64,000 nucleotides of DNA from Modestobacter roseus (GTDB lineage: Bacteria; Actinomycetota; Actinomycetes; Mycobacteriales; Geodermatophilaceae). Below are positions 44,665 to 58,409 of this stretch, in pieces (the first letter of the stretch is position 1; each line of letters starts with the position of its first letter). The stretch spans positions 682,001 to 746,000 of the forward strand of contig NZ_VLKF01000001.1 of the NCBI RefSeq assembly GCF_007994135.1, written 5' to 3'. The position numbers and the translations under genes are program-made. The notes below the pieces were generated by a model that worked only from the letters and a program-made list of their open reading frames with translations, had not been told where the DNA came from and ran no database searches.

Positions 44665-45057
44665 TCAGGGCAGGCCGAGCTCCGCCCGGGTGGCGGCGAG
44701 CGCGGCGTCCGGCGGCGGGAGCCCTCCGGAGGCGAGCACCGAGCCGCCCGCGATCAGCGACTCCAGGGCCAGCCCGGCGCGCACCGAGCGCCGCAGCGCG
44801 GCTCCCCGGAGCCCGCGCCGCCGGCCGTCGCCCACCAGCGCGGGCACCAGCCACAGCCAGTTCGACGGGGAGACGACCTCGATCGCGACGTCGTCGGGCA
44901 GCCCGGTGCGCAGCGCGCGGTAGACCGCGCCGACCGGGTCGTCCGGCGTCCGGTGGTGGTGCTGACCACCGGCGTCGAAGGGGCGCACGTCCCCGCTGCA
45001 GCACCCGCCTCCGCCCGGGCCGCGCGCGCCCCGGACCAGCACGACGCGGCGGCTCAC
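44665..45057 (-). CDS. small Cys-Cys protein translationally coupled to cstA
   Basis: A 130-residue protein from a GTG overlapping the cstA stop by four bases. It starts VSRRVVLVRGARGPGGGGCC, with CCSGD following the glycine run, then HHHRTPDDPVGAVYRALRTG, IEVVSPSNWLWLVPALVGDG and an Ala-rich C-terminus with GGSVLASGGLP. In enterobacteria the partner of CstA is the short YbdD protein; this one is twice as long and unrelated by eye. The Cys pair could bind metal or act as a redox site. No known family is recognised. Confidence 0.6.
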   Translation of the reverse strand: MSRRVVLVRGARGPGGGGCCSGDVRPFDAGGQHHHRTPDDPVGAVYRALRTGLPDDVAIEVVSPSNWLWLVPALVGDGRRRGLRGAALRRSVRAGLALESLIAGGSVLASGGLPPPDAALAATRAELGLP

Positions 45058-46787
45058 CGCGGCTCGTCCCGCGCCACCGCCGGTCGCTCCCCGGCGTCCG
45101 TCGTCGTCCGGTCGCGGAAGGCGCCGCGCAGCGCCAGGGCGGCCTCGACGATCAGCCACAGCGCGAGCAGGAAGATGACGGCGTCCAGCGGGGCCAGCAC
45201 CCACTGGTCGTCGCGGACGAAGTTGCGCAGGTTGACCAGCAGCGCCCACGAGGTCATGGCCAGCAGGAACACCAGCGGGATGAGCACCACGACCGGGCTG
45301 CGGCCGCGGCGGGTGACCCAGACGGCGATGACGGCGAGCGCGAGGCCGGCGGTGAGCTGGTTGGTGGTGCCGAACAGCTGCCACAGCACGCCGAAGGTGT
45401 AGCCGGCCTCCCCGCCGCCGGGCAGCAGCGCCATCGCCAGCGGGATCACCACGGCGATGGTGGTGGCGAGGCTGAGGTTGCGGGCCAGCACCCGGATGCC
45501 GGTGAGCTCACCGATCTCCTGCACGACGTACCGCTGCAGCCGGACGCCGGTGTCCATCGTGGTGGCGGCGAAGCTGATCACCACCACTGCGGCGAAGATC
45601 GTGGCGATGTCCAGCGGGATGCCGATGTTGTTGGCGAAGACCGCGACCCCGTCGACGAAGTTCCCGGTGGCGCCGCCCGATGCGGTGGCGAAGTCGGGGT
45701 AGAGCGCCTGCCACTCGGCCTGCGAGGCGGCCACGCCGGCGGTGGCGGCGAGCACCGCACCCGTGGCCAGCGAACCCTCACCGACCGCCCCCATGTACCC
45801 GACGTAGCGGGCGTCGGTCTCCCGGTCCAGCTGCTTGGACGTCGTCCCCGAGGCGACGAGGGAGTGGAAGCCGGAGATGGCGCCGCAGGCGATGGTGATG
45901 AACAGGAACGGGAAGAAGCTCGGCGACCCCTCGGGGACGTCGTTGACCAGCGGTGCCTGGATGGTGTTCAGGCCGATGATCACGCCGAGGGAGATGACGC
46001 CCAGGGCGATGAAGAGCTGGTGGCTGTTGATGTAGTCCCGCGGCTGGAGCAGCACCCACACCGGGATGCGCGAGGCCACCCACGTGTAGACGAACAGCAG
46101 GATGACCCACAGGTTGCGGGTCTGCTCGAAGCCGAGGGTCTCGGCGAGGCCGTCGAGGGAGACCGGGACGGCGTTGCCGACGAGGATCAGCGCGTAGAGC
46201 AGCAGCACCCCGACGATCGAGGGGATGAGGGCGGAGGACCGGGTCTTGTAGATGTACTGGCCGATGAGCATGGCCACCGGGATCTCCACCACGATCGGGA
46301 TGACCGCGCCGGGGTTGTTCACGAACAGGTTGCCGATGACCACGGCGAAGACGGCGTTCACCAGGGTCAGCAGGAAGAAGATGATCGCCAGGAACAGGCC
46401 CCGGGCCCGGCCGTTGACGACCTCGCCGGCGAGGGTGCCGATGCTGCGGGCCTTGTGCCGCACCGAGACGACCAGCGAGCCGAAGTCGTGCACGCCGGCG
46501 GCGAAGATCGTGCCCAGCACGATCCAGGTGAGCGCCGGGCCCCAGCCCCAGAACACGGCGATCGCCGGGCCCACGATGGGGGCGGCGCCGGCGACGGAGG
46601 TGAAGTGGTGGCCGAAGAGGACGTGCTTGTTCGTCGGCACGAAGTCGTTGCCGTCGTTGAACTCGTGCGCCGGCGTGACGAACGCCGGGTCGAGCACGTA
46701 GACCTTCCGGGCCAGGTAGCTGGAGTAGTACCGGTACCCGAGGAAGAACAGCACCCCGACCACGGCGGCCACGACGACTGCGGGCAC
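45054..46787 (-). CDS. cstA: CstA-family peptide/pyruvate transporter
   Basis: A 577-residue protein with 14 or more hydrophobic segments. The family marks are HEFNDGNDFVPTNKHVLFGH, FTSVAGAAPIVGPAIAVFWG, HDFGSLVVSVRHKARSIGTL, ISGFHSLVASGTTSKQL and FGTTNQLTAGLALAVIAVW. CstA proteins import peptides or pyruvate under carbon starvation. The GTG at 46787 has GGAGG upstream on the minus strand; the frame further upstream is Pro/Arg-rich. A TACTCT -10-like box lies at 46836-46831. It is followed without gap by the small Cys-Cys protein gene. Confidence 0.92.
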   Translation of the reverse strand: MPAVVVAAVVGVLFFLGYRYYSSYLARKVYVLDPAFVTPAHEFNDGNDFVPTNKHVLFGHHFTSVAGAAPIVGPAIAVFWGWGPALTWIVLGTIFAAGVHDFGSLVVSVRHKARSIGTLAGEVVNGRARGLFLAIIFFLLTLVNAVFAVVIGNLFVNNPGAVIPIVVEIPVAMLIGQYIYKTRSSALIPSIVGVLLLYALILVGNAVPVSLDGLAETLGFEQTRNLWVILLFVYTWVASRIPVWVLLQPRDYINSHQLFIALGVISLGVIIGLNTIQAPLVNDVPEGSPSFFPFLFITIACGAISGFHSLVASGTTSKQLDRETDARYVGYMGAVGEGSLATGAVLAATAGVAASQAEWQALYPDFATASGGATGNFVDGVAVFANNIGIPLDIATIFAAVVVISFAATTMDTGVRLQRYVVQEIGELTGIRVLARNLSLATTIAVVIPLAMALLPGGGEAGYTFGVLWQLFGTTNQLTAGLALAVIAVWVTRRGRSPVVVLIPLVFLLAMTSWALLVNLRNFVRDDQWVLAPLDAVIFLLALWLIVEAALALRGAFRDRTTTDAGERPAVARDEPR

Positions 46788-46846
46788 GGCGACCTCCAGC
46801 GCAGGGCGGCCCGAGCGGCCGCAGGCACGGAGAGTAGACAGCGGAT

Positions 46847-47626
46847 GTGACAGCGGACACAAATCCGACGCGAGCGGTGCGGGCCGCCGGGCTGGCCGAG
46901 CTGGTCTGGCGGCGCGACGGCGGTCCACCCGGGGCTCTCGGCGTCGTCCCGCTGCTGCTCGGCGAGCGCCCCGCGGTGGCCCTGCCGTGGGCGCAGGCGG
47001 CCACCGCCCGCAGCGCGGCCGGGGCGGACGCCGTCGCGCTCGTGCTCTCCGACCCCCGGCTCACCGGGTCCGGCTGGGAGCCGCTGGTGCTGAGCGGCCG
47101 GCCGACCCTGCTGGAGGACGGCGACGGTGCGCTGTTCACCGGGGAGCTGCTGGCCCAGGAGCTGCGCAAGCACCCGCCCTCGCGCGCGCTGGCCGACTCG
47201 GCGATGCTCCGCCGGGAGCACTGGTGGTACCTGCCGCGGCTGGTGCTGGTCCTCGACGACGTCCGGATCACCCCGACCCGGCGCCGCGACGGGCCGGCGG
47301 ACGTCGTCCTCGCGGTCGACGACGGCGGCCTGCACGTGGGCACGGCGCGGGTGGGGGAGTGGGGTGCCGACCCGCTGGTGCTCGAGGGCGCGCCGGACGT
47401 GTCCGGCCCGGCGACCCTGGTCGGACAGGAGGTCTCGGTGCCCGACGCCGAGCGGTGGACGGTGCACGAGACGACCGGGTGGCTGGCCGGTGGACAGCTG
47501 TCCGGCGTCGTGCCTGCGGCGACCCGCGAGCTGGAGCCGACCCCGGGCCTGCTGGCCCGGGTCCGCCGGCAGCGGGCGCTGCACCGGGCGTGCGTGGCGG
47601 AGCTGCGGGCAGCCGGCCGCGCCTGA
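46847..47626 (+). CDS. conserved hypothetical protein divergent from cstA
   Basis: A 259-residue soluble protein from GTG 46847. Segments such as VVPLLLGERPAVALPWAQAA, AVALVLSDPRLTGSGWEPLV and LVLSGRPTLLEDGDGALFTG recall the FMN-binding split barrel of pyridoxamine oxidase-like proteins, followed by HWWYLPRLVLVLDDVRITPT. The match is loose and the C-terminal half is not recognisable. It is divergent from cstA with 59 bases between starts and converges with the marR gene 5 bases away. Role unknown. Confidence 0.6.
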   Translation: MTADTNPTRAVRAAGLAELVWRRDGGPPGALGVVPLLLGERPAVALPWAQAATARSAAGADAVALVLSDPRLTGSGWEPLVLSGRPTLLEDGDGALFTGELLAQELRKHPPSRALADSAMLRREHWWYLPRLVLVLDDVRITPTRRRDGPADVVLAVDDGGLHVGTARVGEWGADPLVLEGAPDVSGPATLVGQEVSVPDAERWTVHETTGWLAGGQLSGVVPAATRELEPTPGLLARVRRQRALHRACVAELRAAGRA

Positions 47627-47631
47627 CCGGA

Positions 47632-48141
47632 TCAGTCCCGGCGGGCGGTGCGCTCCTCCAGGGCCTCCTCGGCCTGCAGGTCGCGGACGTGCCCGAGCAG
47701 GCGGCGCAGCAGGTGGTTGAGCTGGGCGACGTCGTCCTCGGAGAGGTCGGCCAGGATGATCTCCTGGCCGCGCAGCGAGATCGGCAGCATGGCGTCGTGC
47801 ATCTGGGCGCCGGCCGTGGTCAGGAACAGCTGCCGGGACCGGCCGGTGTCCTCCACCTGCACGATCAGCCGGCGGTCGGTCAGCACCCCGACGCTCTTGG
47901 AGATGATCGCCTTGTTCATCGCCACGAACTCGGAGATCTCACTCGCCGTCGCACCGGGACGGATGGCGAGGGCGGAGATGACGCGCCAGTCGTTGGTGCC
48001 CAGGCCGAAGCGGGTGCGCAGGGCGCGCGACTCGCGCCAGACCAGGGTGTTGGACAGCAGGGAGATCAGGCGGGGGGTGAAGTTGTCGCTGTCGATCACG
48101 GTCGGCATCGGGTCGGAGACGGCATCCGGCGGCAGCTCCAT
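47632..48141 (-). CDS. MarR-family transcriptional regulator
   Basis: A 169-residue winged-helix protein: LISLLSNTLVWRESRALRTR, GLGTNDWRVISALAIRPGAT, SEISEFVAMNKAIISKSVGV, LTDRRLIVQVEDTGRSRQLF. The recognition helix and wing (EDTGRSRQLFLTTAG) are typical. It lies 130 bases downstream of the aldehyde dehydrogenase gene on the same strand, next to the sugar catabolic cluster, so it is a candidate regulator of the twin palindromes at 49887-49945. The inducer is unknown. Confidence 0.88.
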   Translation of the reverse strand: MELPPDAVSDPMPTVIDSDNFTPRLISLLSNTLVWRESRALRTRFGLGTNDWRVISALAIRPGATASEISEFVAMNKAIISKSVGVLTDRRLIVQVEDTGRSRQLFLTTAGAQMHDAMLPISLRGQEIILADLSEDDVAQLNHLLRRLLGHVRDLQAEEALEERTARRD

Positions 48142-48270
48142 CGTTCGCGTTTCCTCATCGGGGTGGCACGGCGCGCGGCCCCATCCCTCATGAGATGCGA
48201 CTTCTGCCTGTCCGGAAAAGCCTAGTCACGGCACGGTGCCGGGGCGCGCTGTGCGCCCCGGCACCGCGGG

Positions 48271-49770
48271 TCAGTGCGCGGCCCCGGCCTGCTGCGTCTC
48301 GTTGGCCGCGTGGGCGATCGAGCGGGTGTCCTGGAACGCCCGGACCCCCTCGATGCCCTGCTCGCGGCCCATGCCCGAGGCCTTCATGCCGCCGAAGGGG
48401 GCCCGCAGGTCCAGCCGCGCCGCGCCGTGGTCGTTGACCCAGACGTAGCCGCACTCCAGCTGGGAGCCCAGCCGGTCGGCCGCGTCGTCGTCGGCGGTCC
48501 ACACCGAGGCGCACAGCCCGGCCCAGGTGTCGTTCGCCTGGCGCACGGCCTCGGCGTCGTCGTCGAAGGGGATGACCGGGATGACCGGGCCGAACTGCTC
48601 CTGGGTGACCACCCGCAGCGAGGGGTCGGGGTCCACGACGACGGCCGGGCGGAGGAAGTTGCCCTCGGCGAACTCGCCGCCCGGCAGCTCGCCGAACTCC
48701 AGCACCGTCGCCCCGGCGGCCTTGGCCTCCTCGATGATCTCGGCGACGAAGGCCTTCTGCGCCGGCTGGTGCAGCGGGCCCATCGTGGTGCCCTCGGCCA
48801 GGCCGTGACCGAGCACGACCTTCTCCAGGCGGGCGGTGAGCCCGGCGACGAGCTCGTCCATCCGGGACCGGTGCACGTACAGCCGCTTGGCGTTCATGCA
48901 GATCTGGCCCGTGGTGTCGTACACGGCCCCGAACAGCCGGTCCAGGTGGTCGTCGTCGAGGACGGCGTCGGCCCGGATGATCGCCGGGTCGTTGCCGCCA
49001 AGCTCCAGGGTGACCCGGGTGAGGCTGCGGGAGGCCATCTCCATGATCCGCTTGCCGCCGTTGACGCTCCCGGTGAAGCAGACCTTGGCGATGTCGGGGT
49101 TGTCGATCAGGCCGGCCATCTCGCCGTCCCGGCCGGTGACCACGTTGAGCACGCCCGGTGGCAGCTTCTCCGCCACGCGCTGCACCAGGCGGGTGGTGGC
49201 CAGCGGGGTCGAGGGCGGCGGCTTGACGATGGCGGTGTTCCCCGCGAGCAGGGCGTGGGGCAGTGCCGCCGCGAGGATCGCGATCGGCCAGTTGAACGGG
49301 ACGATCACGGTCACCACGCCGATCGGCTGGTAGGCGACGGTCGTCTGCACCGGGATGCCGGGGGCGGGCGGCAGCACCTTGGTCGCGTCCACCTCCTCGG
49401 CGAGGGAGAGGGCGAGCTGCCAGCGGATCTCGAAGACCAGCGCGTCGACCCACGCCTCGTGCACGATCTTGCCGTTCTCCAGGGAGAGCACCCGGGCGTC
49501 CTCGTCGCGCTCGTCGGCGATCCCCGCGATGGCCGCGGCCATCCGGGCCGCGCGCTCCGTGGCCGACAGCGCCGACCAGGCCGGGTACGCCGCCTTCGCC
49601 GCGGCGACGGCGTCCGCCACGTCCTCCTCGGACGCCGCCGCCGCGTGGCCGACGACGACGCCGGGCCGGGCCGGGTCGACGACGTCGAGCACGTCGCTGG
49701 TGCTGCGCTCCTGTCCGCCGATGTAGAGCCCCGTCGTCACCGGAGCCGTCGTGCTGGATGTGACCGTCAT
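48271..49770 (-). CDS. NAD(P)-dependent aldehyde dehydrogenase
   Basis: A 499-residue class 3-like ALDH that oxidises an aldehyde to the acid. NAD-binding: IVPFNWPIAILAAALPHALL and GNTAIVKPPPSTPLATTRL; the Rossmann loop FTGSVNGGKRI; general-base Glu in LELGGNDPAI; catalytic Cys in TGQICMNAKRLYVH; C-terminal PFGGMKASGMGREQG. All key residues are present. ATG 49770 is preceded by GGAGAT-like sequence on the minus strand. It is divergent from the transketolase-led operon across a 290-base region with twin palindromes. A 2- or 3-carbon aldehyde from the transketolase or alcohol dehydrogenase step is a likely substrate. Confidence 0.9.
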   Translation of the reverse strand: MTVTSSTTAPVTTGLYIGGQERSTSDVLDVVDPARPGVVVGHAAAASEEDVADAVAAAKAAYPAWSALSATERAARMAAAIAGIADERDEDARVLSLENGKIVHEAWVDALVFEIRWQLALSLAEEVDATKVLPPAPGIPVQTTVAYQPIGVVTVIVPFNWPIAILAAALPHALLAGNTAIVKPPPSTPLATTRLVQRVAEKLPPGVLNVVTGRDGEMAGLIDNPDIAKVCFTGSVNGGKRIMEMASRSLTRVTLELGGNDPAIIRADAVLDDDHLDRLFGAVYDTTGQICMNAKRLYVHRSRMDELVAGLTARLEKVVLGHGLAEGTTMGPLHQPAQKAFVAEIIEEAKAAGATVLEFGELPGGEFAEGNFLRPAVVVDPDPSLRVVTQEQFGPVIPVIPFDDDAEAVRQANDTWAGLCASVWTADDDAADRLGSQLECGYVWVNDHGAARLDLRAPFGGMKASGMGREQGIEGVRAFQDTRSIAHAANETQQAGAAH

Positions 49771-49886
49771 GCGGATCTCCACCTCTCTGTGTGTCCGTTG
49801 CTGGTCGGGCGCCAGGACCGACGCCCCCGGGCCGGACGTCGGGAGCGCCGGCCCGTCGTGTGTCCCGCACTCCGGCGGGGCGAGCT

Positions 49887-49900
49887 GTTTACATGTGAAC
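49887..49900. promoter_or_regulatory. operator-like palindrome 1 (GTTTACATGTGAAC)
   Basis: A near-perfect 14-bp dyad (12 of 14 bases symmetric) followed by CAT. The same word with one change stands 45 bases downstream. AACCATAGCTGGTT next to it is a second small inverted repeat. Confidence 0.55.
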
Positions 49901-49931
49901 CATAGCTGGTTAGTGTGGCGGCGCACACAGT

Positions 49932-49961
49932 GTTGACATGTGAACCATCCACTGCAACTGT
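49932..49961 (+). promoter_or_regulatory. promoter of the transketolase operon with operator-like palindrome 2
   Basis: The consensus -35 TTGACA (49933-49938) is 17 bases from AACTGT (49956-49961). GTTGACATGTGAAC (49932-49945) covers the -35, so a bound protein would block RNA polymerase. Leader length would be about 90 bases. Confidence 0.6.
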
Positions 49962-50060
49962 GACGCAGCTCACATAACAGGGCGCAGCTGGCGCACCCGG
50001 CAGTCCGGGCGCAGCCGCCAGCACCCGCACCTGACCGTCATCGACGAGGAGTTCCCGAGG

Positions 50061-50939
50061 ATGAGTGACGACGTTGGCCGGCTGGAGGGTGAGCGACCCT
50101 CGGTGCCGGAGCTGGAGGACCTGGCCTTCGAGCTGCGGTCCAAGCTGCTGCACCTGTGCGGCACGTACGAGGGTGCGGTGCACATCGGCGGGGACCTCTC
50201 CGCGGCGGACATCTTCACCGCGCTGTTCCACTACGGGCTGCGGGTCGACCCCGACGACATCAGCAACCCCCGGCGGGACCGCTTCCTGCTGAGCAAGGGC
50301 CACGCCGCCGTCTGCATGTACATCGCGATGTCCATGCGCGGCTTCTTCTCCTACGACGGGATCGTCGAGACCTACGGGAAGCTCGACAGCGCCTACGGGA
50401 TGCACCCGTGCAAGGTGCAGCTGCCCGGCGTGGAGGCGTCCACCGGCTCGCTCGGCCACGGCCTCCCGCTCGCGGTCGGCATGGCGCTGTCCGCCCGGCA
50501 CCGCGGTGAGTCGCACCGGGTGGTCTGCCTGCTCGGCGACGGCGAGACCGGTGAGGGCTCGGTGTGGGAGGCCGCGATGGCCGCCCGCAGCAACCACCTC
50601 GGCAACCTGGTCGCCTTCGTCGACCGCAACCGCCAGCTGATGACCAGCCACGCGGAGGAGCGGATCGCCTTCGAGCCCTACCCGGACAAGTGGCGGGCCT
50701 TCGGCTGGGACGTCGTGGAGATCGACGGCCACGACATGGCCTCGCTGGTGGCCGCGATCGACGCGCTGCCGGCCACCGACAGCGACCGCCCGACCGTCGT
50801 CATCTGCGAGACGGTCAAGGGCAAGGGCGTCGACTTCATGGAGCGCAACCTCGCCTGGCACGCCGGCTCGCTCGGCGCCGCCGACCTCGAGCGGGCGCTG
50901 GCCGCCCTCGAGGCATCCCGGGAGAAGGAGTCGGTCTGA
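50061..50939 (+). CDS. transketolase, N-terminal (ThDP-binding) subunit
   Basis: A 292-residue protein equal to the first third of transketolase. It has the substrate/ThDP histidine in LLSKGHAAVCMYIAMSMRG, the HP in YGMHPCKV, EASTGSLGHGLPLAVGMALS and the ThDP motif GDGETGEGSVWEAAMAARSN followed by HLGNLVAFVDRNRQ. It starts at ATG 50061 and overlaps the C-terminal subunit gene by one base. Split transketolases of this type act on phosphorylated sugars in some organisms, and in others on free ketoses or sulfosugars. It is the first gene of a kinase-free sugar operon. Confidence 0.92.
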   Translation: MSDDVGRLEGERPSVPELEDLAFELRSKLLHLCGTYEGAVHIGGDLSAADIFTALFHYGLRVDPDDISNPRRDRFLLSKGHAAVCMYIAMSMRGFFSYDGIVETYGKLDSAYGMHPCKVQLPGVEASTGSLGHGLPLAVGMALSARHRGESHRVVCLLGDGETGEGSVWEAAMAARSNHLGNLVAFVDRNRQLMTSHAEERIAFEPYPDKWRAFGWDVVEIDGHDMASLVAAIDALPATDSDRPTVVICETVKGKGVDFMERNLAWHAGSLGAADLERALAALEASREKESV

Positions 50940-51904
50940 TGCCGGTCACGTTCACGTTCGGCGAGATGCTGTCGGCCCGGTCGGTGATCGGGTCGACCCT
51001 GGCGGAGCTGGGGAAGACCCACGACAACCTCTGGGTGCTGACCCCGGACATCGGCGCGACGCTGGTGGAGTTCCAGGAGACCTTCCCCGACCGCTTCGTC
51101 GACGTCGGCCTCGCCGAGCAGGTCTGCGTCGGCATCGCCGCGGGCCTCGCCTACGACGGCAACATCCCGGTCGTCTCCGGGATGCTGCCCTTCCTGAGCA
51201 TGCGGGCGCTGGAGCAGATCCGCACCGACGTCTGCTACCCGAACCTGCCGGTGAAGATCATCGGTACGCACGGCGGGCTGGTCGGCAACGGGGGCTCCAC
51301 GCACTACGCCGTCGAGGACCTCGCGCTGATGTGCGCCCTGACCAACATGACGGTCACCTCGATCGGCGACCCGATGATGGTCGGCGAGGTGCTCCGCCAG
51401 TCGATGACCATGCCGGGCCCCCTCTACATCCGGCTCGCGGTCGGCAAGAAGGACAAGGTGCTCTACGCCGAGGGCGAGCACGACGTCCGGATCGGCAAGG
51501 GCATCGTCGCCCGGGACGGCACCGACGCCACGATCTTCACCCACGGGACCACGGTGGCCCAGGCGCTGCAGGCCGCCGAGGACCTCGCCGTCGACGGCCG
51601 GTCGGTGCGGGTGGTCGACATGTTCACCCTCAAGCCGATCGACGCCGACCTCATCGCCCAGTGCGCCGAGGAGACCGGTGGCCGGTTCGTCGTGCTCGAG
51701 GACCACCTGGCCTACGGCGGCCTCGCGAGCCGGGTCGCCGACGTCGTCGCCGACCGCGGCATCCGCCTCACCGGGTTCGAGCGGCTCGGCATCCCGCAGG
51801 TCTACGCCGGCTTCGGCGACGACGAGGAGCTGCGTGACAAGCACGGTTACGGCCTGGCGGCCACCGTGGCCGCCACCCGCCGCGTGATCGCCGCCAAGCC
51901 CTGA
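50939..51904 (+). CDS. transketolase, C-terminal (Pyr) subunit
   Basis: A 321-residue partner of the preceding protein. The catalytic Glu is in RFVDVGLAEQVCVGIAAGLA, followed by VVSGMLPFLSMRALEQIRTD, the GGLVGNGGSTHYAVEDLALM loop and a C-terminal domain with VVDMFTLKPIDADLI and EDHLAYGGLASRVADVV. The order Pyr-C matches split transketolase/DXPS-like proteins. The ATG overlaps the previous stop (TGATG), so equal amounts are expected. The donor ketose is unknown. Confidence 0.92.
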   Translation: MPVTFTFGEMLSARSVIGSTLAELGKTHDNLWVLTPDIGATLVEFQETFPDRFVDVGLAEQVCVGIAAGLAYDGNIPVVSGMLPFLSMRALEQIRTDVCYPNLPVKIIGTHGGLVGNGGSTHYAVEDLALMCALTNMTVTSIGDPMMVGEVLRQSMTMPGPLYIRLAVGKKDKVLYAEGEHDVRIGKGIVARDGTDATIFTHGTTVAQALQAAEDLAVDGRSVRVVDMFTLKPIDADLIAQCAEETGGRFVVLEDHLAYGGLASRVADVVADRGIRLTGFERLGIPQVYAGFGDDEELRDKHGYGLAATVAATRRVIAAKP

Positions 51905-51943
51905 CCCCCTTCCCCGCTTCATCGGCGCTCAACGGAGAGACGG

Positions 51944-53034
51944 ATGAGAACAGTCGCGGTCACCAAGATCGGCAGCCTGCGCGACCCGGACGAGTCGGCG
52001 CGCGGCCGGGTCGGCATCGTCGAGCTGCCCGACCAGCCGCTCGGGCCGGAGGACGTCCGGATCCGCGTCGCCTACGCGGCGATCTGCGGTTCGGACCCGC
52101 ACCTGGCCGAGGGGTTCTTCGGCACCGACGTGCCGATCGGCCTCGGACACGAGCTGTCCGGCGTCGTGGAGGCGGTGGGGGACGGCGTCCGCACCGGGAT
52201 CCGGGTGGGCGACCGGGTCGCCGGCAACTTCCTGCGCTTCTGCGGCAGCTGCGGGCCGTGCCGGGACGGGCGCCAGCAGTTCTGCGAGCACATCCAGGAC
52301 TACAACCGCCCCGGCATGGCCGAGACGGTCACCTGGCACGAGTCGCAGGCGTACCGGCTCCCGGAGTCGGTGAGCCTGCGGCAGGGGTGCCTGCTCGAAC
52401 CGGTGTCGGTCGCCGTCCGGATCGCCGACAAGACGCGGCTGCGGGTCGGTGACCGGGTCGCGGTCTGCGGCGGTGGCCCGATCGGGCAGCTCGCGCTCCA
52501 GGTCATGCGGCTGCACGGCGCCACCTCGCTCACGCTGATCGAGCCGATCGCCGCCCGCCGCGAGATGGCGCTGGCCGCCGGCGCCGAGCACGTCATCGAC
52601 CCGGTCGGGGAGGACCAGGCGGCCCGCGCGGCCGAGATCACCGGCGGGCGCGGGTACGACGTGGTGATCGACGCGTCCGGTTCGACCCGCGCGGTGCGCG
52701 GCCTGCTGGACATCGCGGCCAAGGGCGGCACCGTCGTCTACGGGGCCATGTACCCGCACGACTTCGAGATGCCGCTGAACCTGTCGGACGCCCTGTACCT
52801 CAAGGAGCTCACCCTCACCGGCGTCTTCGTCTCGCCCTACGCCTTCCCGCGGGCGGTGCAGCTGCTGCCGCTGCTGGACCTCGACGCGCTGAGCGCCACC
52901 TGGTTCCCCTTCGACCAGGCCGTCGAGGCGTTCGCCGCGCACCTGTCCGGCGAGCACCCGAAGGTGCTCATCCGGTGCAACGACCTCGACAGCCACGACC
53001 TCGACAGCCACGACCTGGACGAGGGTGGTGCGTC

Positions 53035-53038
<4 letters not shown>
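51944..53038 (+). CDS. zinc-dependent alcohol/polyol dehydrogenase (MDR family)
   Basis: A 364-residue medium-chain dehydrogenase. Catalytic zinc: CGSDPHLAEG and GLGHELSGVVEAVGDGV. Structural zinc: CGSCGPCRDGRQQFC with four cysteines. Cofactor fold: VAVCGGGPIGQLALQVMRLH, then LIEPIAARREMALAAGAEHV. The group is close to sorbitol/xylitol or threonine dehydrogenases. The last residues contain a small tandem repeat, DLDSHDLDSHDLDE, coded by a duplicated 15-base unit. It lies 39 bases behind the transketolase genes and overlaps the ABC ATPase gene by four bases, so it probably oxidises the imported polyol or a product. Confidence 0.87.
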
Positions 53039-54551
<1,513 letters not shown>

Positions 54552-54552
<1 letters not shown>

Positions 54553-55568
54553 TGACGACGAGTGAAGACCGCGCCGTGACGGCGCGGGACGACCGCCCGA
54601 TGGCGGCTCCGGACCTCCCGGCCCAGCCGCGCACGTCCATCGGGAAGACCCTGGTGCAGAGCGGTACGTCCATCGCCCTGCTGGCGCTGATCGTGTTCTT
54701 CTTCGCGATGCGCCCGGACGTGTTCCTGACCTTCACCAACGTCCGGAACATCCTCTACCAGATCTCCATCCTGGCGATCATCGCCGGGGCGCAGACCCTG
54801 GTGATGGTCGTCGGGGACTTCGACCTCTCGGTCGCCGCCACCTCCAGCCTGGCCGGCGCCGTGGCCGCCTCGCTGATGCTGGACGGGCAGCCGACCCTGG
54901 CGGCGATCCTGGTCGCGCTCGCCGTGGGGCTCGCGATCGGCCTGGCCAACGGGGCTCTGGTCGCCTACCTCAACCTCTCCGCCTTCGTGGCCACACTGGC
55001 GACGATGACGTCGGTGACGGGGCTGGCCTACCTCGTCACCGAGGGGACGACGCTGTTCAACCTCCCGGCCGGGTTCAACTCACTGGGCCAGGGCCGGGCG
55101 CTGAACATCCCCGTGCCGGTGTTCGTCGCCATCGGGCTGGCCGTCCTGCTCTGGGCGTTGCTGCGGTTCACCACGACCGGGCGGAAGTGGTACGCCGTCG
55201 GCGGCAACGTCGAGGTGTCCCGGCTCTCGGGCATCAACGTCCAGCGGGGCCGGCTGATGGCCTTCGCCGCCGCGGGGCTGATCGCGGCCGTCGGCGGGGT
55301 CCTGCTGGCGGCCCGGCTGGGCAGCGCGAGCGCCGTCCAGGGCAGCGACAACCTGCTGTTCTCGGTGGCCGCGGTGTTCCTGGGGATGACGGTCATCAAG
55401 TCCGGCCGGGCGAACATCGTCGGGACGATGGTGGGCGTCGCGATCATCGGGGTGATGAGCAACGGGCTCAACATCCTCGGCGTGAACTCCTACGTCCAGC
55501 AGGTGGTCACCGGGCTGATCATCATCGCCGCCGTGACCCTCTCGTCGGTCCGCACCCGGGAGCGGTGA
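54552..55568 (+). CDS. sugar ABC transporter permease (RbsC type)
   Basis: A 338-residue membrane protein with about 9-10 hydrophobic segments after a 30-residue cytoplasmic N-terminus. Family marks: QTLVMVVGDFDLSVAATSSL, LANGALVAYLNLSAFVATLA, TGRKWYAVGGNVEVSRLSGI and VFLGMTVIKSGRANIVGTMV. It probably works as a homodimer with the RbsA-type ATPase coded just upstream. Confidence 0.93.
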
Positions 55569-55672
55569 CCGGGACTCCTCCCGCCGCTCCGCACTCCCCG
55601 CACTCCCCGCACCCGGCCGGCACCCGCCGGCCTCGGTTGGCACACCCGCACGTCCTACAAAGGAGTAAGACC

Positions 55673-56662
55673 ATGCGCAGAATCACCGGACTGGGCGCCA
55701 GCGTCGCGGTCCTGACCCTGGTCCTGGCCGGCTGTTCGTCCGGTGACGACGGCGGCGGTGGTGGCGGGGGCGGTGACGACTCGTTCCGGGTGGTCGCCTT
55801 CACCTCGGGCAACCAGACCCCGATCGGCGCCTGGTGGGTCAAGGCGGTGGAGGAGAAGGCCGACGAGCTCGGCTGGGACCTGACCATGATCCAGGGCGAC
55901 TTCGACTTCCAGAAGATGAACCCGCAGGTGGAGAGCGCCATCGGGCAGGGCACCGACGTGGTCCTGGACGGCTACACCGACGTCGCCTCGATCGGGTCGA
56001 TCGTCACCGCTGCCCGGGACGCCGAGGTGCCCATCTTCGCGATGGACAGCGCGACCGAGGCGACGGACGCGTTCGCGCTCAACATCACCACCGACCAGCA
56101 GGGCATCGTCGACGGCACGCTGGGGGCGCTCGAGGAGTCGCTCGGTGGGCTCGAGGGCAAGAACGTGATGGTCATCGGCCACGACCCGCACCCCGGCATC
56201 CGGATGCGGGCCGAGCTCGCGATGGAGAGCCTGGAGGAAGCGGGGGCGACCATCGCCGGCGGCGGGGTCCAGAAGGTCGAGTCCCCGGCCACCGGCCGTA
56301 CCGAGGCGCTGTCCCTGGTCACCGACTACCTGACGGCCAACCCGGACGGCCTGGACGCGGTCTGGGTCGGCTGGGACGACGCGGCGCTGGGCGCGTCGCA
56401 GGCCATCGCGGAGGCCGGTTCGCAGGCGAAGGTGACCGGCTCGGACGCCACCAGCGAGGCCATCGCCCAGATCCAGGGCGGCGACACGTTCGTGGCCACC
56501 GCCAACCAGCCGTGGCCGGAGGTGCTGGACACGGTGGTCGAGCAGGTGGAGACCTACCGGGAGACCGGTGAGCTGCCGGCGGAGAACTACGAGGCGGTGG
56601 ACACCACCATCGTCGACGACGAGAACGCCTCGACCATCACGCCCTCGGACAAGTTGGGCTGA
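55673..56662 (+). CDS. sugar-binding lipoprotein of an ABC importer (RbsB-like)
   Basis: A 329-residue lipoprotein. The lipobox LAGC puts the lipidated Cys at residue 21, followed by a Gly-rich linker and a type I periplasmic-binding fold: VVAFTSGNQTPIGAWWVKAV, TDVVLDGYTDVASIGSIVTA, DAEVPIFAMDSATEATDAFA, GKNVMVIGHDPHPGIRMRAE. The ATG at 55673 has AAAGGAG upstream. A 104-base gap from the permease could hold an internal promoter, giving the abundant binding protein its own supply. Ligand not predictable from sequence. Confidence 0.92.
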   Translation: MRRITGLGASVAVLTLVLAGCSSGDDGGGGGGGGDDSFRVVAFTSGNQTPIGAWWVKAVEEKADELGWDLTMIQGDFDFQKMNPQVESAIGQGTDVVLDGYTDVASIGSIVTAARDAEVPIFAMDSATEATDAFALNITTDQQGIVDGTLGALEESLGGLEGKNVMVIGHDPHPGIRMRAELAMESLEEAGATIAGGGVQKVESPATGRTEALSLVTDYLTANPDGLDAVWVGWDDAALGASQAIAEAGSQAKVTGSDATSEAIAQIQGGDTFVATANQPWPEVLDTVVEQVETYRETGELPAENYEAVDTTIVDDENASTITPSDKLG

Positions 56663-56747
56663 GCCCCACCCCGAGCGGTCGGGGGCGGGAGCGTCCGTCC
56701 CGTCCCCGACCGCTGTCCACGATCGACGTCAGCGGAAGGCAGTTCCC

Positions 56748-57545
56748 ATGCGTGGAGAAGGCAAGCGTCTCGAGGGCAAGGTCGCCCTGATCACCGGCGG
56801 GGCCAGCGGCATCGGCCTCGCGACGGTGCAGAAGTTCGTCCGGGAGGGCGCCAAGGTGCTCGTCGTCGACATCGACGCCGAGCGCGCGGAGAAGGTGGTC
56901 GCGGAGATCGAGGCCGACGGCCAGGCCGGGTCCGTCGCGGCGGCGCAGGCCGACGTGTCGGTGTACGCCGACGTCGAGGCCGCCGTGCAGCGCGCGGTCG
57001 ACGTCTTCGGCAGGCTCGACGTCATCTTCAACAACGCCGGCATCGCCGGGGGCAAGGCGCTGCTCGACCACGACCCGGCTGTCGACTACGCGCCGATGAT
57101 CCGGGTCGACCAGGACGGCGTCTACCACGGCATCCTCGCCGCCGGCCGCCAGTTCAAGTCGCAGGGCACCGGTGGGGTCATCATCAGCACCTCCTCCATC
57201 TACGGGGAGCAGGCGGCCGAACTGGCGTTCAGCTACAGCGCGGCGAAGGCCGCGGTCATCTCCTTCACCCGCTCGGCGGCCTACGAGCTGGCCGAGTACG
57301 GCGTACGCGCGGTGGCGATCACGCCCGGGCGGGTGGGCACCCCGATCATCAACCAGTTCAGCGAGGAGCTGCGGACGACGTTCGCATCCGAGCAGCTGCG
57401 CAACGCGCTGACCGAGCCCAGCGAGATCGCCGACGTCGTGGCGTTCCTCGCCTCCGACGAGGCGAACGCGATCAACGGCACCGTGGTGCACGTCGACGAC
57501 GGCTACTCGGTGTTCAAGCAGCGCCTCGACCTGCCGACGTTCTGA
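56748..57545 (+). CDS. short-chain dehydrogenase/reductase
   Basis: A 265-residue classical SDR: cofactor motif GGASGIG near residue 17, VVDID acidic residue (NAD preference), NNAG, catalytic Ser in IISTSSIYGEQ, and Tyr/Lys in FSYSAAKAAV. The C-terminus has TPGRVGTPI and a normal INGTVVHVDDGYS end. It lies 85 bases after the sugar-binding gene and 9 bases before the epimerase gene. Likely a second oxidoreductase on the same sugar or polyol. Confidence 0.9.
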   Translation: MRGEGKRLEGKVALITGGASGIGLATVQKFVREGAKVLVVDIDAERAEKVVAEIEADGQAGSVAAAQADVSVYADVEAAVQRAVDVFGRLDVIFNNAGIAGGKALLDHDPAVDYAPMIRVDQDGVYHGILAAGRQFKSQGTGGVIISTSSIYGEQAAELAFSYSAAKAAVISFTRSAAYELAEYGVRAVAITPGRVGTPIINQFSEELRTTFASEQLRNALTEPSEIADVVAFLASDEANAINGTVVHVDDGYSVFKQRLDLPTF

Positions 57546-57554
57546 GGGGTCGAC

Positions 57555-58409
57555 GTGCCGATCGAGGTCGCCTGCCACCTCAACGTGCTGGTGCCGGACA
57601 TGGCCGAGCCGGAGCTGGGCCGGGCGCTGCGCACGCTGGCCGACCTGGGCTACACCGCGGTGGTGCTGCCGCCGATCGACCCGGACAGCGCGCCGCTGGG
57701 GGAGTGGGCCGCGGTGTTCCGCGACCACGGGCTCACCCCGATCACCATCGCGGGGCAGGCGCCGGGTGCCGACGTCTCCTCCGCCGACCCGGTCGAGCAG
57801 GAGCGGGGCGCACAGGCGCTGCGCCGGATGGTCGAGGCCACCGCGGCGCTGGGCGGTGACCAGATGAACGGGGTCTCCTACGGGCTGTTCGGGCGGGCGC
57901 CGACCGCGGCGCCGGCCGGGGCGTTCGAACGGGCGGCGGCCCAGCTCGGCGCCGTCGCCGACCACGCGCACGACCAGGGGGTCGCGATGACCTTCGAGGT
58001 GCTCAACCGCTACGAGACCGCGCTGATCAACACGGCGGCGCAAGCGCGGGACTTCGTGGCCGCCAGCGGCTCATCGCACCTGCGCGTGCACCTGGACACC
58101 TTCCACATGGCGGTCGAGGAGACCGACATGGTGGGTGCGGTGCAGGAGACGGCGCCGGTGCTCGGCTACCTGGAGCTGGGGCAGTCGGGTCGGGGAGCGC
58201 TGGCCGGCGGGGTGGTGGACGTCGAGGCGGTGGTGCGGGCGGCGATCGACGCCGGGTACTCCGGCCGGGTCGGGCTGGAGGCGTTCTCCCGCTCGGTGCT
58301 GACGGCCGGGGCGAGCGACCTGCTCGCCATCTGGCGGGAGACCTACACCGACGGCGCCGCGCTGGCCGCGGAGGCGATCGAGCTGGTGCGGAAGGCCGAG
58401 GCCGGCTGA
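57555..58409 (+). CDS. TIM-barrel sugar isomerase/epimerase
   Basis: A 284-residue protein of the xylose-isomerase-like AP endonuclease 2 superfamily, near D-tagatose/D-psicose 3-epimerases. Metal ligands by position: Glu in MTFEVLNRYE, Asp in RVHLDTFHMAVEE and Glu in GRVGLEAFSRSVL. Where D-tagatose 3-epimerase has a His ligand before the GExxR loop, this protein reads LELGQSGRG, so a Glu may replace it. GTG start 57555, 9 bases behind the SDR stop. Probably the last gene of the catabolic operon; it would epimerise or isomerise a ketose. Confidence 0.83.
   Translation: MPIEVACHLNVLVPDMAEPELGRALRTLADLGYTAVVLPPIDPDSAPLGEWAAVFRDHGLTPITIAGQAPGADVSSADPVEQERGAQALRRMVEATAALGGDQMNGVSYGLFGRAPTAAPAGAFERAAAQLGAVADHAHDQGVAMTFEVLNRYETALINTAAQARDFVAASGSSHLRVHLDTFHMAVEETDMVGAVQETAPVLGYLELGQSGRGALAGGVVDVEAVVRAAIDAGYSGRVGLEAFSRSVLTAGASDLLAIWRETYTDGAALAAEAIELVRKAEAG

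What the first reader, a model, noticed from the sequence alone, without database searches (positions are those of the whole stretch)
47632..58409. Kinase-free sugar or polyol catabolic cluster with split transketolase
Seen: MarR gene, aldehyde dehydrogenase, two-gene transketolase, Zn-alcohol dehydrogenase, RbsABC-type importer, SDR, 3-epimerase-like protein, nearly all overlapping or closely spaced. No sugar kinase, phosphatase or phosphosugar isomerase is present. Known: RbsABC imports free sugars, and split transketolases occur in sulfosugar and branched-pentose routes. Inferred: imported polyol is oxidised to a ketose, epimerised, then split by transketolase without prior phosphorylation, with the aldehyde product oxidised by the ALDH. 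Such a non-phosphorylating transketolase route would be unusual; the substrate is not predictable.
Basis: partly seen in the sequence, partly recalled or inferred. Interest (0 to 1): 0.7.

Follow-up and report, generated by a model that had tools for sequence, protein, structure and literature searches.

The report
Transketolase pathway for lignin side chains
A ten-gene bacterial cluster looks like an unrecognised route that imports small lignin-type aromatic alcohols and snips off their carbon side chain with a modified sugar-metabolism enzyme, leaving the aromatic part for ordinary vanillate breakdown.

Summary
In detail: MarR, ALDH, split transketolase (TK), Zn-ADH, CUT2 importer, SDR and a ketose-3-epimerase-like protein form a kinase-free cluster conserved in many Actinobacteria. 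Of 29 distinct actinobacterial genomes with this TK, 23 carry a vanillate-type O-demethylase (LigM or VanA); in a Microbacteriaceae sample 27 of 299 do. In several the demethylase lies beside the cluster. The TK clade has lost a phosphate-binding Arg (kept in 0 of 22 rows, 77 of 85 other split TKs) and is altered at positions mutated to make E. coli TK accept benzaldehydes. A palindrome at the TK promoter was found nowhere else in the own genome or in 11 relatives. I propose an arylglycerol pathway: triol -> 1,3-dihydroxy-1-arylpropan-2-one -> aromatic aldehyde plus a transferred C2 unit -> aromatic acid -> O-demethylation. All chemistry is inferred. Six TK-positive genomes lack LigM and VanA; the two whose surroundings I read have ring-cleavage-type genes beside TK. 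Searches of an open-access library found no description of such a route.

The parts
47632..48141 (-). MarR-family regulator (169 aa), probable regulator of the cluster
   Evidence: Pfam MarR_2 35.6 bits, cut-off 27; MarR orthologs beside most of the actinobacterial TK clusters read
48271..49770 (-). Aldehyde dehydrogenase (499 aa), proposed to oxidise the aromatic aldehyde
   Evidence: Pfam Aldedh; below the cut-off of the 25 NCBIfam families shown; nearest PDB chains are general, aminoaldehyde and betaine aldehyde dehydrogenases; a different ALDH (34-38% identical) stands after the epimerase in L037 and L040
49887..49945 (+). Two operator-like palindromes (GTTTACATGTGAAC at 49887, GTTGACATGTGAAC at 49932); consensus in relatives GTTTACNTGTAAAC
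   Evidence: only two sites in the own genome at up to 3 mismatches; in relatives only at the TK promoter at up to 1 mismatch
50061..50939 (+). Transketolase N-terminal subunit (ThDP-binding, 292 aa)
   Evidence: Pfam Transketolase_N; best PDB 6yak split TK; active-site His and GDGE motif align with human and C. hydrogenoformans TK
50939..51904 (+). Transketolase C-terminal subunit (pyrimidine and C-terminal domains, 321 aa) with altered phosphate site
   Evidence: best PDB 6yaj; residues at human S345, D424, R474 are T (or A, alignment ambiguous), G, V; clade support 100/100 in a 42-row tree
51944..53038 (+). Zn-dependent alcohol/polyol dehydrogenase (364 aa)
   Evidence: Pfam ADH_N, ADH_zinc_N; best PDB 4oh1, named L-iditol 2-dehydrogenase, E 1.4e-63
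53035..54552 (+). CUT2 (RbsA-type) double ATPase
54552..55568 (+). CUT2 (RbsC-type) permease
55673..56662 (+). Substrate-binding lipoprotein (RbsB family), Trp 68, 231, 234, 281 invariant in 17 aligned members
   Evidence: Pfam Peripla_BP_4; alignment A1; W234 falls where the nearest PDB chain 4ry0 has Asn
56748..57545 (+). SDR-family alcohol dehydrogenase (265 aa)
   Evidence: Pfam adh_short_C2
57555..58409 (+). Ketose 3-epimerase-like TIM barrel (284 aa) with Glu in place of the metal-ligand His
   Evidence: NCBIfam D-psicose 3-epimerase 115.6 bits, below its cut-off of 300; PDB 8yeb, 5zfs, 3vyl; alignment with 14 orthologs

Best explanation
The cluster is a transketolase-based pathway for arylglycerols (Ar-CHOH-CHOH-CH2OH: guaiacylglycerol and its 4-hydroxyphenyl, syringyl or methoxyphenyl analogues, such as lignin breakdown releases). 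The CUT2 importer brings the triol in. The Zn-ADH and/or SDR oxidise the middle carbon to HOCH2-CO-CHOH-Ar, which has the head group of a transketolase donor. The epimerase-like TIM barrel inverts the benzylic carbon (C3 in ketose numbering), or shifts the carbonyl, so that all stereoisomers become usable. The split TK cleaves C2-C3, releases the aromatic aldehyde (vanillin type) and hands the two-carbon unit to an acceptor, perhaps GAP to give xylulose 5-phosphate as in sulfo-TK. The ALDH makes the aromatic acid; LigM or VanAB encoded elsewhere demethylate it. MarR represses the cluster through a dedicated operator. Shown by computation: gene set, conservation, genomic association with O-demethylases, altered TK site, dedicated palindrome. 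Inferred: every chemical step, the substrate, the acceptor and the regulator-operator pairing.
For: 1) Linkage: LigM, PurU-type and MTHFR-like genes directly beyond MarR in L036, L038 and L052; LigM and PurU beyond the epimerase in G625; VanA and a VanB-like reductase directly beside MarR, and PobA a few genes further, in the 1.7-Mb genome G572; VanA about 1.8 kb from TK-N in G680 and about 10 kb in G583; a CYP199-type P450 in L044. 2) Co-occurrence: own family 6 of 6 TK+ genomes have LigM against 31 of 112 overall (p 3e-4); Microbacteriaceae 7 of 13 TK+ have LigM or VanA against 27 of 299 (p 2.7e-5; relatedness ignored); of 12 actinobacterial TK genomes reached through named contigs 9 have LigM and the other 3 VanA. 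3) TK site: R474 lost in 22 of 22 clade rows (V in 17, Q in 5) and kept in 77 of 85 other split TKs; D424 is G in 22 of 22. S385Y/D469T/R520Q at what I take to be the corresponding positions gave E. coli TK that uses benzaldehyde derivatives (PMC5073344, abstract and section 6); a split TK accepts phenylacetaldehyde (PMC7661550, passages). 4) Ketose 3-epimerases act at C3, which in the proposed ketol is the benzylic carbon (PMC8167858, passages). 5) Own genome has four LigM homologs, three of them near folate C1 genes (mostly by eye; one PurU by NCBIfam). 6) A MarR protein with vanillate and syringate as effectors controls ligM in SYK-6 (PMC6888825, abstract).
Against: No enzyme or growth test exists. 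Six of 29 TK+ actinobacterial genomes have neither LigM nor VanA at the thresholds used. None of ten aromatic reference genes lies in the 64-kb window; of 19 distinct actinobacterial neighbourhoods only 9 showed such a gene, mostly within about 10 kb. The importer, Zn-ADH and epimerase belong to sugar/polyol families. The epimerase family lacks the canonical His metal ligand, so its activity is uncertain. D424 is also lost in most other split TKs (27 of 85 keep D), so only the R474 change is nearly clade-specific, and L056, L057, L058 and L061 lost it too. R318 is kept in 22 of 22, so some phosphate binding may remain. The palindrome is not found at the LigM or VanA genes, so no shared regulation was seen.
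Confidence: 0.55

Rival explanations
1. One reading: a free non-aromatic polyol or sugar is imported, oxidised to a ketose, epimerised and split by the TK without phosphorylation. The aromatic genes nearby reflect a shared plant-litter lifestyle only.
For: CUT2 importer, polyol-type Zn-ADH, ketose-3-epimerase-like TIM barrel; six TK+ genomes without LigM/VanA; sulfo-TK shows that a TK can use an unphosphorylated ketose (PMC9594981, passages).
Against: Does not explain why LigM and VanA stand in for one another beside or with the TK cluster, the loss of R474, or the conserved Trp in the binding protein.
Confidence: 0.2
2. The substrate is aromatic but not an arylglycerol (for example a phenolic glycoside or another aryl ketol), or the TK runs in the condensing direction to detoxify aromatic aldehydes.
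For: The genomic association shows only that aromatic acids or aldehydes are involved; engineered TK forms aryl ketols from aldehydes in vitro.
Against: No glycosidase among the ten genes; importer, two dehydrogenases, epimerase and ALDH fit an arylglycerol stepwise; a detoxifying TK would not need an importer.
Confidence: 0.17
3. The TK is a dihydroxyacetone-synthase-like enzyme that fixes formaldehyde released by O-demethylation.
For: Co-occurrence with O-demethylases; VanAB is known to release formaldehyde (recalled).
Against: LigM passes the methyl group to folate (recalled), yet 18 of the 23 demethylase-positive TK genomes have LigM; X5P as donor needs the phosphate site that is altered here; importer, SDR and epimerase would be unexplained.
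Confidence: 0.04
4. Sulfosugar (sulfo-TK) or branched-pentose (apulose-4-phosphate TK, recalled) pathway.
For: TK with ADH or aldehyde dehydrogenase, as in sulfo-TK clusters (PMC9594981, passages).
Against: No SqwI-type (PF02502) isomerase, sulfonate gene or sugar kinase among the ten genes.
Confidence: 0.04

Closest known systems
Sulfo-TK pathway, SqwGH (6-deoxy-6-sulfofructose transketolase)
   Same: TK said to cleave an unphosphorylated ketose and pass the C2 unit to GAP; the aldehyde product is then reduced or oxidised (PMC9594981, passages read)
   Different: No sulfosugar genes here; different importer and O-demethylase association; sequence relation to SqwGH not tested
Engineered E. coli transketolase S385Y/D469T/R520Q
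   Same: The positions I take as corresponding are changed in this natural clade (T/A/N, G, V or Q)
   Different: Natural two-chain enzyme; other replacements (Q for R only in the Bacillota/Chloroflexota rows); R318 (E. coli R358, recalled) kept
Carboxydothermus hydrogenoformans split transketolase (6yak/6yaj)
   Same: Two-chain architecture; nearest solved structure
   Different: Keeps the S345, D424 and R474 equivalents
Sphingobium/Novosphingobium beta-aryl ether and HPV pathways (LigDLNO, HpvY/HpvZ)
   Same: Lead lignin C6-C3 units to vanillate (PMC11837543, passages read); vanillate then demethylated by LigM (PMC6888825, abstract)
   Different: Side chain shortened by oxidation via vanilloyl acetaldehyde; no transketolase in the passages seen
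L-ribulose/D-allulose 3-epimerases (3vyl, 5zfs, 8yeb)
   Same: Fold family, catalytic Glu pair, Asp ligand and O1-binding residues align
   Different: Metal-ligand His replaced by Glu; GESHR becomes GQSGR in the window protein and its 14 orthologs

Membership tests
Transketolase (ThDP-dependent) | ThDP-binding N domain, pyrimidine domain, catalytic Glu and active-site His | tested here: met
   Pfam; Glu366 equivalent kept in 22 of 22 clade rows; His positions of the window protein align
Canonical pentose-phosphate transketolase | Phosphate-binding residues (human R318, S345, H416, R474; assignment recalled) | tested here: not met
   R474 lost in 22 of 22, S345 not S in 21 of 22, R318 kept in 22 of 22, H416 kept in 17 of 22
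Sulfo-TK pathway | TK beside sulfosugar isomerase and sulfonate genes | tested here: not met
   None recognised among the ten genes
Ketose 3-epimerase (D-tagatose 3-epimerase family) | Metal ligands Glu, Asp, His, Glu (PMC8167858, passages) | tested here: not met
   His replaced by Glu in the window protein and all 14 orthologs aligned; the 25%-identical L099 row, not an ortholog, keeps His
Ketose 3-epimerase (D-tagatose 3-epimerase family) | O1-binding Glu/His/Arg | tested here: met
   NRYE, FHM and GR conserved in the window protein and its orthologs
CUT2 (RbsABC) importer | Double ATPase, BPD_transp_2 permease, Peripla_BP_4 binding lipoprotein | tested here: met
Arylglycerol catabolic pathway (proposed) | Linked or co-occurring aromatic O-demethylase | tested here: met
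   23 of 29 distinct actinobacterial genomes; 6 of 29 not. The five Bacillota/Chloroflexota genomes (L047-L051) have no LigM (VanA not tested there)
Arylglycerol catabolic pathway (proposed) | TK cleaves an unphosphorylated aryl ketol | not testable with these tools
   needs enzyme assay

The most novel reading that the evidence does not exclude
A natural, widespread transketolase has been re-purposed for aromatic catabolism: it splits the glycerol side chain of lignin-derived arylglycerols and feeds two of its carbons into sugar metabolism. It evolved changes at the positions that directed evolution used to give E. coli TK benzaldehyde activity, and it runs in soil Actinobacteria, in small streamlined actinobacterial genomes and, in a different gene setting, in some Bacillota and Chloroflexota.
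Probability: 0.5. Interest if true: 0.86.

Novelty: new variant of a known kind. Interest (0 to 1): 0.76.

Why it matters
[quoted passage not shown] A transketolase route would join lignin catabolism to sugar-phosphate metabolism, explain an orphan operon found in several actinobacterial families, and supply a natural TK for making or breaking aryl dihydroxyketones in lignin valorisation.

Tried and rejected
Sulfo-TK and apulose readings were rejected as family membership: no accompanying genes recognised. A co-regulated kinase was sought through the palindrome and not found. NCBIfam gave no equivalog above cut-off among the families shown (best 25 per protein). I first thought that CYP199 also replaces LigM; it does not, since the genome of L044 also has four LigM matches. 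I first read the binding protein's WW pair as replacing RbsB's FF; the profile alignment does not support that, so only the Asn-to-Trp position is used. The structure prediction of the binding protein was not finished at any collection, so no fold evidence is used. Paper searches cover an open-access library and list only the best hits; the only listed paper holding both guaiacylglycerol (or arylglycerol) and transketolase was PMC3777014, seen in the listing only. In PMC9618137 and PMC12997858 (passages) transketolase does not occur in the main text. Older subscription literature on guaiacylglycerol degradation was not searched. The 87-locus control differs in taxonomy from the actinobacterial loci and includes short contigs, so it is weak. 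P450 genes were examined in one locus only. The gene caller in my scripts is crude and produced some wrong-strand ORFs. Rows dropped from the TK-C table: L001-L004 and loci whose TK-C match spanned about 170 residues or less.


Full report
WHAT IS THERE. MarR and ALDH read leftwards. TK-N, TK-C, Zn-ADH, CUT2 ATPase, permease, binding lipoprotein, SDR and a TIM-barrel protein read rightwards; TK-N/TK-C, Zn-ADH/ATPase and ATPase/permease overlap by one to four bases. No kinase, phosphatase or phosphosugar isomerase is among them by Pfam. NCBIfam assigns none above an equivalog cut-off among the families shown. The own genome has 4.5 Mb; its other Transketolase_N matches are a strong one in an 809-residue frame and a weak third one, so the split TK appears to be an extra enzyme.

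CONSERVATION. Among these is a group at 81-92% identity in Actinobacteria (Geodermatophilaceae, Microbacteriaceae, Micrococcaceae, Jiangellaceae), mostly with the same gene order, and a group at 61-72% in Bacillota and Chloroflexota (L047-L051), where a Zn-ADH stands near the TK genes in 4 of 5 but the rest of the set is different; L048 has a CUT2-type importer and another AP_endonuc_2 TIM-barrel gene further upstream. Identity then falls to 53% and below. A TK-C tree of 42 rows puts the 14 sampled members in one group with support 100/100. In L045 and L046 the TK genes are followed at once by the epimerase-like gene, which ties these two functions together. ALDH is kept but exchangeable: a different ALDH (34-38% identical) follows the epimerase in L037 and L040, a cut-off gene of the same cluster in L035, and both kinds occur in L036, L038 and L043.

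AROMATIC NEIGHBOURS. In L036, L038 and L052 the genes directly beyond MarR are an MTHFR-like gene, a formyl-THF deformylase (PurU type) and a GcvT-family gene. In L036 the last is a full-length homolog of vanillate/3-O-methylgallate O-demethylase LigM (PDB 5x1i and 5tl4, E 5e-217 and 1e-216). In G625 LigM and PurU lie beyond the epimerase. The one-contig 1.7-Mb genome G572 has no LigM at E <= 1e-100; there the genes beyond MarR are a VanB-type reductase (by eye; NCBIfam finds related reductases below cut-off), a Rieske oxygenase with Pfam VanA_C, a PadR regulator, an ALDH and a 4-hydroxybenzoate 3-monooxygenase (NCBIfam 445 bits, cut-off 351). The nearest solved structure of that oxygenase is dicamba O-demethylase. 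L044 carries a P450 whose closest solved relatives include CYP199A4 (E about 1e-106), known for 4-methoxybenzoate O-demethylation (recalled); the genome of L044 also has LigM. L051 (Lachnospiraceae) has a URO-D family protein upstream, which may be a corrinoid O-demethylase; this is weak. L045 (= G510) and G642 have an intradiol dioxygenase, an iron-ADH of possible maleylacetate-reductase type (by context) and a FAD monooxygenase next to TK; L035 has a phenol-hydroxylase-like gene. In all, 9 of 19 distinct actinobacterial neighbourhoods (window, L034-L045, L052, L053, G625, G572, G642, G316) show such a gene; P450s were looked at in L044 only. Of 87 loci of other split TKs, 1 does (URO-D, 31%), a control that differs in taxonomy.

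CO-OCCURRENCE. Microbacteriaceae sample, 299 genomes: TK-N clade (E <= 1e-100) 13, LigM-like (E <= 1e-100) 16, VanA-like (E <= 1e-60) 11, no genome with both LigM and VanA; 7 of 13 TK+ genomes have one of the two, expected 1.2, hypergeometric p 2.7e-5; 7 of 8 TK+ genera. In 6 of the 13 the gene lies within about 20 kb of TK-N on the same contig (LigM in G634, G625, G316; VanA in G572, G680, G583); a rough chance expectation within 22 kb is 0.03 for LigM and 0.007 for VanA (assuming 2.9 Mb per genome). Own family, 112 genomes: TK 6, LigM 31, all 6 TK+ have LigM, p 3e-4. These p values ignore relatedness. Twelve actinobacterial TK genomes reached through named contigs (L034-L040, L042-L044, L046, L053): LigM in 9, VanA in the other 3, and two partial VanA matches in L035's genome besides LigM (thresholds 1e-60 and 1e-40). 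Merging duplicates (L034 = G781, L040 = G583, L041 = G538, L045 = G510, L052 = G634, judged from shared contig lengths or gene positions), 23 of 29 distinct genomes carry LigM (18) or VanA only (5). The six that carry neither (G407, G488, G510, G563, G597, G642) are genomes of 1.3-1.8 Mb, 77-95% complete, from two genera, one of which (g249) also holds the VanA-positive G680. I read the surroundings of two of the six (G510, G642); both have the intradiol/iron-ADH set beside TK. The five Bacillota/Chloroflexota genomes have no LigM. The own genome has four LigM homologs (67, 51, 44 and 42% identity), three of them near PurU, FolD and MTHFR-like genes (by eye; PurU of L120 by NCBIfam; the MTHFR-like gene of L120 had no Pfam match at 1e-10), but none of ten aromatic reference genes lies within the 64-kb window, and no VanA was found in the own genome.

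TRANSKETOLASE SITE. Aligned with human TK and the C. hydrogenoformans split TK, the 22 clade rows (17 actinobacterial with the window, 5 others) keep the catalytic Glu366, R318 and F392 equivalents in 22 of 22. They change R474 to V (17) or Q (5), D424 to G (22) with a one-residue deletion, and S345 to T, A or N (21 of 22; the alignment is ambiguous there because of a two-residue deletion). Among 85 other split-TK rows R474 is kept in 77, D424 in 27, S345 in 55. The five non-actinobacterial rows also lose H416. The correspondence of human S345/D424/R474 to E. coli S385/D469/R520 and the phosphate-binding roles are recalled. In E. coli TK, S385Y/D469T/R520Q was reached by substrate walking from phosphorylated to aromatic aldehydes; D469T makes room for the ring and R520Q improves Km (PMC5073344, abstract and section 6). 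The split TK of C. hydrogenoformans accepts phenylacetaldehyde (PMC7661550, passages). So this clade looks naturally tuned to unphosphorylated, bulky, probably aromatic partners. Against a full loss of phosphate binding: R318 stays, and in Actinobacteria H416 stays; against clade-specificity: D424 is lost in most other split TKs and R474 in eight other rows.

THE OTHER PROTEINS. The TIM barrel is closest to ketose 3-epimerases (8yeb, 5zfs, 3vyl). In such an enzyme O1-O3 of the ketose are held and two Glu exchange the proton at C3; metal ligands are Glu, Asp, His, Glu (PMC8167858, passages). The window protein and all 14 orthologs aligned have Glu instead of that His and GQSGR instead of GESHR (the 25%-identical L099 row is not an ortholog). 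The rest of the O1-O3 end is kept. In the proposed ketol HOCH2-CO-CHOH-Ar the C3 carbon is the benzylic one, so such an enzyme could make both stereoisomers usable; a carbonyl shift is the alternative. The Zn-ADH is nearest to a chain named L-iditol 2-dehydrogenase. The binding-protein alignment of 17 members has invariant Trp 68, 231, 234 and 281; W234 stands where the ribose-type protein 4ry0 has Asn, compatible with an aromatic ligand but not proof.

REGULATION. The ALDH-TK intergenic region holds two copies of a palindrome (49887, 49932), and relatives have GTTTACNTGTAAAC there. In the own genome it occurs only there at up to 3 mismatches. In 11 of 12 related genomes every hit at up to 1 mismatch lies at the TK promoter (each of the 14 loci returned carries TK-N beside the site); the twelfth, G810, has no hit at that setting but a two-mismatch site in L044. 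So neither a kinase nor a demethylase appears to share this site. A MarR protein regulated by vanillate and syringate controls ligM and desB in SYK-6 (PMC6888825, abstract), a parallel only.

HOW IT PROBABLY WORKS. Arylglycerol is imported; its middle carbon is oxidised; the benzylic stereocentre is adjusted; TK releases Ar-CHO and hands the C2 unit to an acceptor; ALDH gives Ar-COOH; LigM or VanAB (and PobA for 4-hydroxybenzoate) lead on to ring cleavage. [quoted passage not shown]). Known bacterial routes for related lignin units shorten the side chain by oxidation (PMC11837543, passages). I found no description of a transketolase route in the searches listed, which cover open-access papers only and show capped lists.

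LIMITS. No step of chemistry has been measured. The association shows that the cluster goes with methoxy-/hydroxy-aromatic metabolism; that the substrate is an arylglycerol follows from enzyme logic. Sampling is of one genome per species. The acceptor of the C2 unit is unknown.

Noticed in passing
L120 and L122 (own genome C1:1572000-1591999, 1267500-1287000): Two gene sets of PurU, FolD, MTHFR-like and LigM (mostly identified by eye) and four LigM paralogs in all: an extensive folate-linked O-demethylation capacity.
   Followed up: partly
L122:11257-12957(+): FAD_binding_4 protein that looks like a vanillyl-alcohol/eugenol-oxidase type enzyme (by eye) near the LigM genes.
   Followed up: no
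L056, L057, L058, L061: A second split-TK group (support 100/100 in the TK-C tree) that also lost R474 (V or I); three of the four share neighbour gene clusters. Possibly another unphosphorylated-ketose pathway.
   Followed up: no
L048:14597-19975: UxaE (tagaturonate epimerase family) and TRAP transporter genes near the Bacillota form of the TK cluster.
   Followed up: no
L035:16609-17466, L041:18690-19535, L043:16511-17332: A second SDR gene (28-29% identical to the window SDR) in three clusters, and also in L044; in L035 and L041 together with a second binding-protein gene, perhaps for a further stereoisomer.
   Followed up: no
L053:14431-18234: In the Phytoactinopolyspora draft the permease, binding-protein and epimerase genes each appear as two ORFs.
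   Followed up: no
window 45054-46928(-): Carbon-starvation (CstA-like) membrane protein gene next but one to the cluster (by eye).
   Followed up: no
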